Shown here: positions 45,113-48,971 of the stretch, piece by piece | Position numbering within the stretch: the first letter of the stretch is position 1 | How the letters are laid out: each line of letters opens with the position of its first letter | Origin: Candidatus Bathyarchaeota archaeon | GTDB taxonomy: Archaea; Thermoproteota; Bathyarchaeia; Bathyarchaeales; WUQV01 | Direction of reading: 5' to 3' | Assembly: GCA_021158125.1 (NCBI GenBank) | Contig: JAGGVF010000019.1 | Location: forward strand, 1 to 64,000 | DNA: 64,000 nt | Notes under the pieces: model-generated | The model's database searches: none | The model's input: the letters and a program-made list of their open reading frames with translations, nothing else | Told to the model about the DNA's origin: nothing | Program-made: the position numbers and the translations under genes

Positions 45113-45529
45113 TCACGTTTCCATATAAGGCATTAATCTTTTAACTATCTCTTCGGGAATTTTTGTGGCTTTCATAGAATTCTTATCTACAGCGACTACT
45201 ACTAAGTGTCCTTCTGCGGCCAGCTTCTCTTCAGTCTTATTGTAGACTTTAAACAAGTATTTGACGGCTTTTTCCCTAATTTCCTTAATTGAAAGTTCTA
45301 TTTCAACTAAGTCGTTGAATTTAAGCGGATTTCTATAGTTGCAGTGGGCTTCAACTCTTGGAAGTATTATTGAGCTTTCCCGGGAAAGGCTTTCAAAACT
45401 GAATCCTAGACTTCTGTAGAATTCTTCCTCCGCCCTTTCGAAGTATCTGAAATAGTTGGAAAAATGCACTATTTGGGCGGCGTCCGTGTCTACCCAGCTT
45501 ACTCTGAACGTTGTTTTAAAGGTTGGCAT
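45113..45529 (-). CDS. Hot-dog thioesterase (4HBT family)
   Basis: A 138-residue acyl-CoA thioesterase-like protein. FRVSWVDTDAAQIVHFSNYFRYFERAEEEF is the 4-hydroxybenzoyl-CoA thioesterase signature: Asp15 region (V-D-T-D-A-A) and N-Y-F-R-Y-F-E. Then PRVEAHCNYRNPLKFNDLVEI. Probably a tetramer in the cytosol, hydrolysing an acyl-CoA that cannot be named from sequence. Confidence 0.88.
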   Translation of the reverse strand: MPTFKTTFRVSWVDTDAAQIVHFSNYFRYFERAEEEFYRSLGFSFESLSRESSIILPRVEAHCNYRNPLKFNDLVEIELSIKEIREKAVKYLFKVYNKTEEKLAAEGHLVVVAVDKNSMKATKIPEEIVKRLMPYMET

Positions 45530-45613: not shown

Positions 45614-45832
45614 TTATAGCTCTATTCCTTCGGTGCCCATCTTAGCTTTTGCGACAACTGCCCTGAACTTTTTTCCGCAGTTTGGGCATTCGTACATTCC
45701 AAATATAGTTACTGTGATTCTCATTTTCTTGTCGGGGAAGGGGGCTACTAGCTCCCACGTTTTATAGGGTTCATTAACTACTGTTCCGCAGTTTGGGCAT
45801 CTATTCTCTCTACTTATTCGTTTCTTCGGCAT
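45614..45832 (-). CDS. Cren7-like zinc-ribbon protein A
   Basis: A 72-residue protein in which two C-P-N-C-G knuckles (RCPNCGT, ECPNCGKKFR) enclose a short beta barrel-like stretch KTWELVAPFPDKKMRITVTIFGMY. The stretch resembles the Cren7 chromatin protein: a Trp plus hydrophobic DNA-facing strand, K-K/R-rich turn, I-x-x-F strand, and the K-x-F-R before the C-terminus. Cren7 itself has no cysteines, so this would be a zinc-stabilised version. It is 15 bases downstream of a paralogue (45848-46018), in one transcript. DNA binding is inferred, not shown. Confidence 0.6.
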   Translation of the reverse strand: MPKKRISRENRCPNCGTVVNEPYKTWELVAPFPDKKMRITVTIFGMYECPNCGKKFRAVVAKAKMGTEGIEL

Positions 45833-45847
45833 TTTGGATTCGACAGC

Positions 45848-46018
45848 CTAAATCTTCTTCTTGCTTAGTACAGCTCTAAATGTTTTCTTACATTTTGGGC
45901 AGTCGAAAAGTCCAATTTCAAGCTCAGTTCTTTTTCCTTTTCTGTCCGGGCGTCCAGCCATCTTCCACTTTTTCCTCGGCTTCTTTACATTTGTTCCGCA
46001 GTTTGGGCATTTAGCCAT
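45848..46018 (-). CDS. Cren7-like zinc-ribbon protein B
   Basis: A 56-residue basic protein with zinc knuckles KCPNCGTNVKK and LFDCPKCKKTFRAVL around KKWKMAGRPDRKGKRTELEIG. The part from the Trp on follows Cren7 closely: Trp, hydrophobic strand, R-K-G turn, I-G-L-F, P, then K-x-F-R-x-x-L. Cren7 is a monomeric, non-specific DNA-bending protein of Crenarchaea with the same I-G-L-F and F-R residues. Start 46018 has GGAGG 8 bases upstream; a longer frame to 46054 is unlikely. The function as chromatin protein is an inference from the shared core. It precedes protein A by 15 bases. Confidence 0.65.
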   Translation of the reverse strand: MAKCPNCGTNVKKPRKKWKMAGRPDRKGKRTELEIGLFDCPKCKKTFRAVLSKKKI

Positions 46019-46157
46019 TACATTTCCTCCATATATGCAGTAACATGGTTTCAATGATAATGAATAAAAGATTTTCCATTGGGACTGAATTGTTGGCCGC
46101 TGAATAGCTGTTAATCTTTAACATAATTAGCTGGTTAGGAGCTTATCATCAAGTTTT

Positions 46158-48971
46158 CTATTTCCATTTCCATACTTTTCTATTCATGAATAGTTCTGGC
46201 AGGACCAATAGTCCCCAGCTTGCAACGCCGACAACGTAGAGTAGGTCGATGGGTGTTAGCGGAACTATGTGGAACATTCTTTGTGTAATTGGAATGTAGC
46301 ATATTCCAAGCGTTAGGGCTATTGAAGCCAGCACTGCCACTACAAAGAATTTGTTAGAGAAGTTTTTGCGTCCAAGCCTCCAGACGCTTCGTTTTTCTGA
46401 GCGGCAGTTCCAAATGACGAAAAGTTCAAACATTGCTGCTTGAACAAAAGCAGCTGTTCTTGCCTCGTTTAATGTTGCTTCTGTTCCAAATCCGTGGGCT
46501 GGCCAAACGTAATATTCTAATGCGAAAACCAAGAATGTTCCGGCTGCTTGAAGTAGGAAGGACGCTATTATGAAGGCTATCATGCCGTGAAGTATACCTT
46601 CTTCAGGTTTTCTTGGCGGTCTTTCCATAACGTCTTCTTCAGGCGGGTCTGTAGCTAAGGAAACTGCGGGCGCCCCGTCGGTTACTAGGTTTATCCAGAG
46701 AATCATGGCTGGCAAGAGTGGAAGCGGGAACATTTCTTCCCCGAATATTCCGCCTAATATGGCAAATGTCCCTATTACAAGGAGTTCGTCGAAGTTGCAT
46801 GCGATTAGGAATCTTGCATACTTCCGTATATTATCGTAAATTACTCTTCCGTACTCAACTGCCCGCACTATGGTTGCAAAGTTGTCATCCGTCAGAACAA
46901 GGCTGGATGCTTCCTTTGTTACGTCGGTTCCTGTAATTCCCATAGCAACTCCTATGTCTGCCGTTTTAACTGCCGGGGCATCGTTGACCCCATCGCCTGT
47001 CATGGCGACTATGTGGCCCTTCGCCTTCAGCGCCCTAACAATTTTTAGCTTGTGCTCGGGGGAAACTCTGGCGTAAACTGTTACTTTTTCAACTATTTCC
47101 TCAAATTCTTTTTCGTCTAGGCTTTCAAGTTCCTTTCCGGTTAAAACTATGTCTCCCTCTTTGAATACTCCAATTTCCTTTGCAATTGCCACAGCGGTTA
47201 GTTTATGGTCTCCAGTTATCATTACAGTTTTTATTCCGGCTTTTTGACATTTCTTGTTGGCTTCTATTGCCTCTTCCCTTGGAGGATCCATCATTCCCTC
47301 TAATCCGATGAAAATCATGTCTTTCTCAATTTCTTCGCTGTATTTCTCAGTTTTTTTCGGAAGTTCTTTATAGGCCATCCCTAAAATTCTTAGTGCTTCT
47401 TTTGCCATTTCTTCGTTTATTTTTAGAATTTCTTTCTTTTTCTTTTCGGTTAGTTTCTTTATTTTCCCGTTGTCTAGTATGTATGTGCATTTTTCGAGAA
47501 CAACTTCTGGGGCGCCTTTAAGGAGGGCTACTTTCTTCTTTTCAGGTGTTAGGTGTATGGTTGTCATGCATTTTCTTTCAGATGTGAATGGTATTTCTCC
47601 TATTCTTGGATAGTTCTTTTCTAGGGTTTTGTATTTTAATCCAGCTTTTTCTGCTGCTACGATTAATGCTGCCTCCGTTGGGTCGCCGATGACTTCCCAT
47701 TTTTCTTTTTCTTTGACGATTAACGCATTGTTACATAAGGCTCCAATTTTTAGGAGATAAATTAGGGCTTCTTCTTTTTCTGGTTCTATTTTTTCTCCTC
47801 TAAATATGAATTCGCCTTTGGGTTCATAGCCTACTCCTGTGACTTCGTAGATTTTGTTATCAACGTAGACTCGGCGAACAGTCATTTCTCCCTTCGTTAA
47901 GGTTCCAGTTTTGTCTGAACATATAACAGTGACTGCGCCTAGAGTTTCGGCTGCAGCTAATTTCCTAATTATGGCGTTTCTTCTTGCAAGTTCTCTTGCG
48001 CCCAAAGCTAGGGTTATTGTAACTATTGCGGGTAATCCTTCTGGGACGGCTGAAATAGCTAGGGCTATCGAGGACATAAAAGCCTGTATAAAGCCGTTTA
48101 CTTCAAAGTGGCCTTGCATGACCACTTCAAAAGCTTCTAATGCGAAAATTACTGTGCACACTGCAATTACAATCTTGGCTATCTTGCTTGCAAAGCTGTC
48201 AAGTTTTTTTTCAAGAGGAGTTTTTTCCTCTTCTGCTTCTTGAACCATTTTGGCTATTTTTCCAAATTCAGTTTTCATACCGGTTGCTACAACAACGGCT
48301 TTTCCTCTTCCATAAACTATGTGGGTAGCCGAAAAAACCATGTTTCTTCTTTCACTAAGGGGTGCAGAAGGCTCAACCACTGTAACTTGCTTATTTACCG
48401 GTGTTGACTCTCCGGTTAATACCGCCTCGTTTGCTCTGAGTTCTATAGCTTCAATTATTCTAGCGTCTGCTGGGACTCTGTCTCCAGCCTCTAGGGCTAA
48501 AATATCGCCTGGAACAACCTCTCTTGCCGGGATAACAACAATTTTCCCATCGCGAATAACTCGAGCTTTCGGTGCAGCTAACTTTTTAAGAGCTTCTAAA
48601 GCTTTTTCAGCTCTAAACTCCTGAACGAAACCGGCTATAACACACATTATTACTATAACAATAATTGTTATTGCGTCCGTGTAGGATTCAAGAAAGCCTA
48701 TTGAAGGGTCATGTAAACTTTCGAAGTATCCTACTCCAATTGAGAATATGGCCGCAAAAATTAATAGGAGGATAAATACGTCCTTAAATTGACTTAGAAA
48801 CATTTGCAGTGCAGTTCTTCCTTTTTTCTCGGTCAACTCGTTATATCCGTATTTTTTAAGTCTTTCTTCAGCTTCTTTTTGACTAAGTCCCTTCAAACTA
48901 GTATTTAACTTTCTAAAAATTTCCTCTTCGCTTAATGAATGCCACTGCAGTTCAGTTTGAGCCTTTGCCAT
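46158..48971 (-). CDS. P-type Ca2+-transporting ATPase (P2A type)
   Basis: A 937-residue P-type ATPase. Order: N-terminal cation-ATPase domain (WHSLSEEEIFRKLN), actuator loop VLTGESTPVN, helix M4 with SAVPEGLPAIVTI, phosphorylated Asp (about 353) in CSDKTGTLTKGEMTV, the nucleotide domain with KGAPEVVLEKC, hinge TGDGVNDAPAVKTADIGVAMG, helix M5 with CNFDELLVI, and M6 LWINLVTDGAPAVSLATDPPEEDVM. The residues E in M4, N/E in M5 and N/T/D in M6 match SERCA calcium sites I and II, so Ca2+ export is the most likely role. No regulatory tail. Confidence 0.92.
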   Translation of the reverse strand: MAKAQTELQWHSLSEEEIFRKLNTSLKGLSQKEAEERLKKYGYNELTEKKGRTALQMFLSQFKDVFILLLIFAAIFSIGVGYFESLHDPSIGFLESYTDAITIIVIVIMCVIAGFVQEFRAEKALEALKKLAAPKARVIRDGKIVVIPAREVVPGDILALEAGDRVPADARIIEAIELRANEAVLTGESTPVNKQVTVVEPSAPLSERRNMVFSATHIVYGRGKAVVVATGMKTEFGKIAKMVQEAEEEKTPLEKKLDSFASKIAKIVIAVCTVIFALEAFEVVMQGHFEVNGFIQAFMSSIALAISAVPEGLPAIVTITLALGARELARRNAIIRKLAAAETLGAVTVICSDKTGTLTKGEMTVRRVYVDNKIYEVTGVGYEPKGEFIFRGEKIEPEKEEALIYLLKIGALCNNALIVKEKEKWEVIGDPTEAALIVAAEKAGLKYKTLEKNYPRIGEIPFTSERKCMTTIHLTPEKKKVALLKGAPEVVLEKCTYILDNGKIKKLTEKKKKEILKINEEMAKEALRILGMAYKELPKKTEKYSEEIEKDMIFIGLEGMMDPPREEAIEANKKCQKAGIKTVMITGDHKLTAVAIAKEIGVFKEGDIVLTGKELESLDEKEFEEIVEKVTVYARVSPEHKLKIVRALKAKGHIVAMTGDGVNDAPAVKTADIGVAMGITGTDVTKEASSLVLTDDNFATIVRAVEYGRVIYDNIRKYARFLIACNFDELLVIGTFAILGGIFGEEMFPLPLLPAMILWINLVTDGAPAVSLATDPPEEDVMERPPRKPEEGILHGMIAFIIASFLLQAAGTFLVFALEYYVWPAHGFGTEATLNEARTAAFVQAAMFELFVIWNCRSEKRSVWRLGRKNFSNKFFVVAVLASIALTLGICYIPITQRMFHIVPLTPIDLLYVVGVASWGLLVLPELFMNRKVWKWK

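What the first reader, a model, noticed from the sequence alone, without database searches (positions are those of the whole stretch)
45614..46018. Tandem Cren7-like chromatin proteins rebuilt around a zinc ribbon
Seen: two adjacent genes encode proteins of 56 and 72 residues. A C-P-N-C-G knuckle precedes, and a C-P-x-C-x-K-x-F-R knuckle closes, a stretch that follows Cren7 (Trp, hydrophobic strand, basic turn, I-G-L-F, P, K-x-F-R-x-x-L). Cren7 as known in Crenarchaea has no cysteines. Inference: a zinc-stabilised, Cren7-related DNA-binding family, duplicated, possibly the main chromatin protein of this lineage and a link between zinc ribbons and the Cren7 SH3-like barrel.
Basis: partly seen in the sequence, partly recalled or inferred. 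Interest (0 to 1): 0.75.

Follow-up and report, generated by a model that had tools for sequence, protein, structure and literature searches.

The report
Two zinc-ribbon relatives of Cren7
Two neighbouring genes of a bathyarchaeon encode small zinc-binding relatives of the archaeal chromatin protein Cren7; they are real, ancient and conserved, but the link between zinc ribbons and Cren7 was published in 2018, and nothing shows that they are the main chromatin proteins of this lineage.

Summary
Window 45614-45832 (-) and 45848-46018 (-) encode 72- and 56-residue proteins, each with two C-x2-C knuckles around a Cren7-like core. Both are under strong purifying selection, and their order is kept in 20 of 23 bathyarchaeal genomes that carry the 72-aa type. 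AlphaFold models built without any classic Cren7 sequence have Cren7 (6a2i) as best match among 350,542 PDB chains (probability 1.00 and 0.99, but E-values of 0.14 and 0.23). Neither protein reaches Pfam's Cren7 cut-off, yet four-cysteine Cren7 proteins of other Thermoproteota do, and a profile of those scores ours at 55-56 bits against at most 34 for shuffles.

The evolutionary idea is not new: Kaur et al. 2018 (PMC5906684) derived Cren7/Sul7 from zinc ribbons and described four-cysteine homologues. The 72-aa protein is most likely the tail-less bathyarchaeal form of their 'Cren7Znr' family; the 56-aa protein is a very basic, often multi-copy bathyarchaeal branch. 'Main chromatin protein' is unsupported: 176 of 189 genomes of the class encode histones, and this genome also has two Alba genes. 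Most likely they are zinc-stabilised, minor-groove-binding accessory nucleoid proteins. Zinc and DNA binding are inferred, not shown.

The parts
45848..46018 (-). P0002: 56-aa very basic (pI 10.4) Cren7-type zinc ribbon; Cys4, Cys7, Cys40, Cys43; Trp18; Met20 at the place of Cren7 Leu28; I-G-L-F 35-38; F47-R48
45614..45832 (-). P0001: 72-aa Cren7-type zinc ribbon, tail-less relative of the crenarchaeal Cren7Znr family; Cys12, Cys15, Cys49, Cys52; Trp26; Leu28 at the place of Cren7 Leu28
46062..46077 (-). BRE/TATA-like promoter GGAAAATCTTTTATTC of the two-gene unit, conserved in 69 of 77 P0002-type loci
46026..46030 (-). Shine-Dalgarno-like GGAGG before the P0002 start codon; a similar site lies within 18 nt of the start in 71 of 76 loci

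Best explanation
The two genes form a small operon for two ancient paralogues of the zinc-ribbon branch of the Cren7 superfamily. In each protein four cysteines from two knuckles hold one zinc ion at the turns of two hairpins (inferred). Three long strands form a Cren7-like sheet (predicted here). The most likely mechanism is Cren7-like: the sheet lies on the minor groove of double-stranded DNA without strong sequence preference, basic residues hold the phosphates, and the hydrophobic residue two after the conserved Trp (Met20 in P0002, Leu28 in P0001) wedges between base pairs and bends the DNA (inferred). P0002, very basic and often multi-copy, would be an accessory nucleoid-associated protein beside histones and Alba. 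P0001, about one copy per genome and conserved across the phylum, probably has a narrower DNA- or transcription-related task on the same fold. Shown here: homology, conserved gene order, conserved promoter, predicted fold. Inferred: zinc, DNA binding, bending, cellular role.
For: Pfam Cren7 matches P0002 over residues 14-52 (E=0.002) and 26 of 27 orthologues at E<=0.1. The zinc-ribbon Cren7 profile scores 54.9 and 56.1 bits, against at most 27 and 34 for shuffles and 19.5 for unrelated ribbons. Both AlphaFold models, made without classic Cren7, have Cren7 6a2i as top PDB match. The wedge position is invariant Met or Leu, and Leu28 of Cren7 intercalates (PMC5042384). Gene order conserved in 20 of 23 genomes; purifying selection; conserved promoter; basic charge. 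Related domains are fused to a GIY-YIG domain. Kaur et al. reached the same family assignment (PMC5906684).
Against: P0002 is below Pfam's Cren7 cut-off (18.5 of 25 bits) and P0001 shows no Cren7 match. Foldseek E-values (0.14, 0.23) are not significant alone. Histones are near-universal in the class, so a packaging role is not needed. P0001 is less basic, mostly single-copy and extremely conserved, which is unlike a bulk packaging protein. No zinc, DNA-binding or abundance data exist.
Confidence: 0.55

Rival explanations
1. They are zinc-ribbon accessory factors of transcription or translation that bind RNA polymerase, TFB or RNA rather than packaging DNA. This suits P0001 in particular.
For: Knuckle-level matches to TFIIB, Elf1, RpoP and L44e ribbons. 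P0001-type is about one copy in most crenarchaeal genomes and very conserved; its crenarchaeal relatives carry an acidic tail. The coiled-coil paralogue sits directly after TFB in the own genome and in all 10 relatives checked.
Against: None of those family models covers the whole domain or passes its cut-off (the only cut-off passed is by the generic knuckle model Zn_ribbon_3 for P0001). Fold and core sequence follow Cren7.
Confidence: 0.25
2. They anchor DNA during chromosome segregation or cell division, as Kaur et al. predicted for Cren7 relatives with intact zinc ligands.
For: Published fusions to FtsZ and to a CdvA-like coiled coil (PMC5906684); two CdvA-family genes exist in this genome.
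Against: The pair does not adjoin division genes: the neighbours are a P-type ATPase and a thioesterase, and the neighbours of the window were found beside the pair in only one relative (ATPase). The coiled-coil paralogue gave no listed CdvA match.
Confidence: 0.12
3. They are unrelated zinc ribbons whose likeness to Cren7 is convergence or chance.
For: Knuckle motifs are common, and scores against classic Cren7 alone are low; P0001 with the fuller classic profile does not exceed its best shuffle.
Against: Four-Cys proteins that pass Pfam's Cren7 cut-off bridge the two; Cren7 is the top fold match for both models; the zinc-ribbon Cren7 profile far exceeds all shuffles; published analysis agrees (PMC5906684).
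Confidence: 0.05

Closest known systems
Cren7Znr family of Kaur et al. 2018 (type APE_2454.1, Aeropyrum pernix)
   Same: P0001 has the same core and four cysteines as 100-120 aa crenarchaeal proteins found about once per genome; a profile of 16 of them scores P0001 at 111.7 bits and P0002 at 53.7.
   Different: P0001 lacks the acidic C-terminal tail ending in IELD(L/I) that all 16 inspected crenarchaeal proteins have. That these 16 are the Cren7Znr family is inferred from the paper's description; APE_2454.1 itself was not on hand.
Cren7 (PF11520), chromatin protein of Crenarchaea
   Same: Trp, wedge residue, I-G-L-F, Pro and F-R core; small and basic; top fold match.
   Different: Four zinc-ligand cysteines, a longer basic loop in P0002 (GRPDRKGKR), below the Pfam cut-off, and histones are present in the same genome.
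Four-cysteine Cren7 homologues (Kaur et al. 2018; here L080-L083)
   Same: Same two knuckles around a Cren7 core; profile scores of 55-56 bits for both window proteins.
   Different: The bathyarchaeal pair forms separate groups in the tree and stands as a conserved two-gene unit.
Sul7d of Sulfolobales
   Same: Works-like analogy only: a small barrel protein that bends DNA from the minor groove (prior knowledge and PMC5906684).
   Different: No sequence match seen; not tested further.

Membership tests
Cren7 (PF11520) | Score above Pfam's gathering cut-off (25 bits) | tested here: not met
   P0002 18.5 bits, P0001 no Cren7 match listed
Cren7 (PF11520) | Core motif: Trp, hydrophobic wedge, I-G-L-F, Pro, F-R in order | tested here: met
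   P0002 in full; P0001 in part: G-M-Y replaces I-G-L-F
Cren7 (PF11520) | Cren7 fold | tested here: met
   Predicted only: best of 350,542 chains for both models, probability 1.00 and 0.99, TM 0.63 and 0.59 by target length; E-values 0.14 and 0.23
Cren7 (PF11520) | Metal-free fold, as in the solved Sulfolobus Cren7 | tested here: not met
   Four invariant knuckle cysteines; but four-Cys members pass the Pfam cut-off, so this is not exclusive
Cren7 (PF11520) | Binds and bends double-stranded DNA by intercalation | not testable with these tools
   Wedge residue conserved; no experiment possible
Zinc-ribbon Cren7 homologues (Kaur et al. 2018) | Four cysteines at the beta1/beta2 and beta4/beta5 turns of a Cren7 domain | tested here: met
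Cren7Znr (Kaur et al. 2018), for P0001 | Core orthologous to the crenarchaeal paralogous family | tested here: met
   111.7 bits with a profile of 16 crenarchaeal proteins; hits in about 88 crenarchaeal genomes at E<=1e-15
Cren7Znr (Kaur et al. 2018), for P0001 | Extended C-terminal region with a conserved acidic residue | tested here: not met
   P0001 and its bathyarchaeal orthologues end about 15 residues after the FR motif; no acidic tail. P0001 is therefore described as a tail-less relative, not a full member
Main chromatin protein of the lineage | Takes the place of histones | tested here: not met
   One histone and two Alba genes in this genome; histones in 176 of 189 genomes of the class
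Main chromatin protein of the lineage | High cellular abundance | not testable with these tools
   Only a conserved promoter is known

The most novel reading that the evidence does not exclude
The pair is a dedicated two-protein, zinc-dependent chromatin element: the very basic P0002 bends or coats DNA while P0001, the tail-less form of a phylum-wide zinc-ribbon protein, links it to transcription. With the coiled-coil paralogue that always follows TFB, this would be an uncharacterised chromatin-transcription system working alongside histones in Bathyarchaeia.
Probability: 0.15. Interest if true: 0.65.

Novelty: new member of a known kind. Interest (0 to 1): 0.4.

Why it matters
The proteins are living examples of the proposed path from a metal-held zinc ribbon to the metal-free Cren7 barrel, which makes a published evolutionary claim testable by structure and mutation. 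The P0001 type has counterparts in most crenarchaeal genomes, including Sulfolobus-like ones, so the role of an almost unstudied small protein could be tested in a laboratory strain. They also show that Bathyarchaeia combine histones, Alba and Cren7-type zinc ribbons in one cell.

Tried and rejected
Generic ribbon identity (Zn_ribbon_3, HVO_2753, Elf1, RpoP, L44e and others): mostly single-knuckle matches, none a convincing whole-domain match. PDB sequence hits of P0001 to designed SAKe and Kelch propellers and to designed zinc fingers: a short W-x-L-V-A-P or CPxCGK motif summed over repeats, none significant singly. 'Main chromatin protein': rejected on gene content. Recent tandem duplication: rejected by distribution and tree. 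The fourth weak hit in the genome (L005, 336-aa frame) is a multi-knuckle zinc-ribbon protein without the Cren7 core. CdvA as identity of the coiled-coil paralogue: no listed match. One malformed call gave nothing; a first promoter pattern was mis-written and corrected. No paper on zinc-ribbon Cren7 other than Kaur et al. 2018 was found.

Full report
WHAT IS THERE. Two ORFs on the minus strand, 56 aa (45848-46018, P0002) followed by 72 aa (45614-45832, P0001), are separated by 15 nt. They lie between a P-type ATPase gene (46158-48971) and a 4HBT thioesterase gene (45113-45529). Each protein has two C-x2-C knuckles. P0002 has 19 basic and 4 acidic residues (pI 10.4); P0001 has 14 and 7 (pI 9.55).

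ARE THEY REAL GENES. Yes. P0002 relatives at E<=0.001 occur in 126 of 189 genomes of the class (some of these matches are to the paralogues). All 80 named hits in GTDB genomes are bathyarchaeal by title except two labelled Nitrososphaerota. Clear P0001 orthologues (E<1e-20) occur in 23 of the 189 genomes, and 20 of the 23 have a P0002-type gene immediately upstream in the same direction (my count; gaps of 17-38 nt where the start codon is clear). The three exceptions, G028, G157 and G171, include the two that lie outside the order. Synonymous differences are near saturation (pS 0.68-0.72) while pN is 0.12. A promoter of the form GGAAAATTTTTTAT stands 33-52 nt before the start codon in 69 of 77 P0002-type loci, against 0.04 expected and none further upstream. 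This implies transcription and, by inference, substantial expression.

RELATION TO CREN7. Pfam's Cren7 model matches P0002 over residues 14-52 with E=0.002, below its cut-off, and matches 26 of 27 orthologues at E<=0.1. It is not listed for P0001. A profile of Cys-free Cren7 sequences from this phylum scores P0002 21.3 and P0001 17.8 bits, above all of 1000 shuffles each that kept C, P and G in place; other two-knuckle proteins reach at most 2.7. With a fuller classic set P0001 (15.0) falls below its best shuffle (17.1), so P0001's direct link to classic Cren7 is weak. The link is made through intermediates. In other Thermoproteota some Cren7 proteins keep all four knuckle cysteines (L080-L083; the two scanned, L080 and L081, score 52.8 and 51.8 bits, above the cut-off), others keep three (L077-L079), and the classic ones have none at those places. 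A profile of four-Cys sequences scores P0002 at 54.9 and P0001 at 56.1 bits, against at most 27 and 34 for shuffles. Profile-profile E-values against classic Cren7 are 4e-6 and 2e-4, for a single pairwise comparison. A tree with few columns and a midpoint root places classic Cren7 at the tip of the four-Cys and three-Cys series, and P0001 and P0002 types on the other side of the root.

FOLD. AlphaFold2 with alignments holding only P0002-type (27) or only P0001-type (14) sequences gave mean pLDDT 88.3 and 75.6 and three long strands. For both models the first of 350,542 PDB chains is Cren7 6a2i (probability 1.00 and 0.99; E 0.14 and 0.23; 35% and 24% identity). For P0001 the second is the ZPR1 zinc ribbon. 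The E-values are not significant by themselves; the evidence is that two separate models give the same top hit.

MECHANISM. In Cren7, Leu28 intercalates from the minor groove and kinks DNA by about 50 degrees (PMC5042384). The aligned residue is Met20 in P0002, invariant in 27 sequences, and Leu28 in P0001, invariant in 14; it is also Leu in the crenarchaeal relatives. The Cren7 chain that best matches the P0002 profile, 5wwc, has Met at this place itself. I infer Cren7-like minor-groove binding and bending, with zinc replacing part of the hydrophobic core. None of this was measured.

TWO DIFFERENT PROTEINS. P0001 is not a recent copy of P0002. A P0001 profile finds about one gene in most crenarchaeal genomes (about 88 of those sampled at E<=1e-15, my count). 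The 16 inspected are proteins of roughly 100-120 aa with the same core and an acidic tail that holds IELD(L/I). This fits the description of the Cren7Znr family of Kaur et al. (APE_2454.1), whose defining tail is missing in Bathyarchaeia. Genomes with classic Cren7 carry this second gene too (for example G473). P0002-type proteins form a bathyarchaeal branch with a basic loop (MAGRP-D-x2-GKR), and genomes have up to seven matches.

CHROMATIN CONTEXT. This genome has one histone and two Alba genes. Histone genes are found in 176 of 189 genomes of the class. The pair cannot be called the main chromatin protein on present evidence.

PRIOR ART. Kaur, Iyer, Subramanian and Aravind 2018 (PMC5906684) argued that Cren7/Sul7 arose from a zinc ribbon, reported crenarchaeal and bathyarchaeal homologues with two to four knuckle cysteines, defined Cren7Znr, listed fusions (FtsZ, CdvA-like coiled coil, URI) and predicted roles in cell division. 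As far as that paper's main text shows, new here are the conserved two-gene unit, the tail-less bathyarchaeal relative of Cren7Znr, the conserved promoter, the GAR1-TFB-coiled-coil neighbourhood and the co-occurrence with histones. The supplement could not be read.

Noticed in passing
L004:1486-1914 (own genome, G000:C22); L212-L221: A third paralogue: an N-terminal Cren7-type zinc ribbon plus about 80 residues of strongly conserved coiled coil. It follows GAR1 and TFB on the same strand in this genome, and follows TFB in all 10 relatives checked (GAR1 also present in nine; the tenth contig ends inside TFB). A possible link between chromatin and transcription initiation.
   Followed up: partly
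L118, L119, L124: Proteins with an N-terminal GIY-YIG domain, a DUF5752-like middle part and a C-terminal zinc-ribbon Cren7 domain in bathyarchaeal relatives, matching the URI fusion mentioned by Kaur et al..
   Followed up: partly
L120-L123: Proteins of about 150-220 aa with an N-terminal domain of about 95 residues without Pfam match (winged-helix-like by eye), then a zinc-ribbon Cren7 domain whose last knuckle is C-x2-H, in two of the four followed by a Lys-rich tail.
   Followed up: partly
46030-46077 and the same stretch in L132-L211: Between the TATA box and the start codon many P0002-type loci share ATCATCATNAGAAACCATGG, more than a core promoter needs; a possible operator or leader element.
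   Followed up: partly
L010, L114-type loci G114:C67 and G122:C117: The P0001-type gene next to P0002 looks frameshifted in a few relatives (for example L010, L032, L013), either assembly errors or gene loss.
   Followed up: no
L222, L223 (G000:C14 and G000:C4): Two CdvA-family genes above the Pfam cut-off in this bathyarchaeal genome.
   Followed up: no
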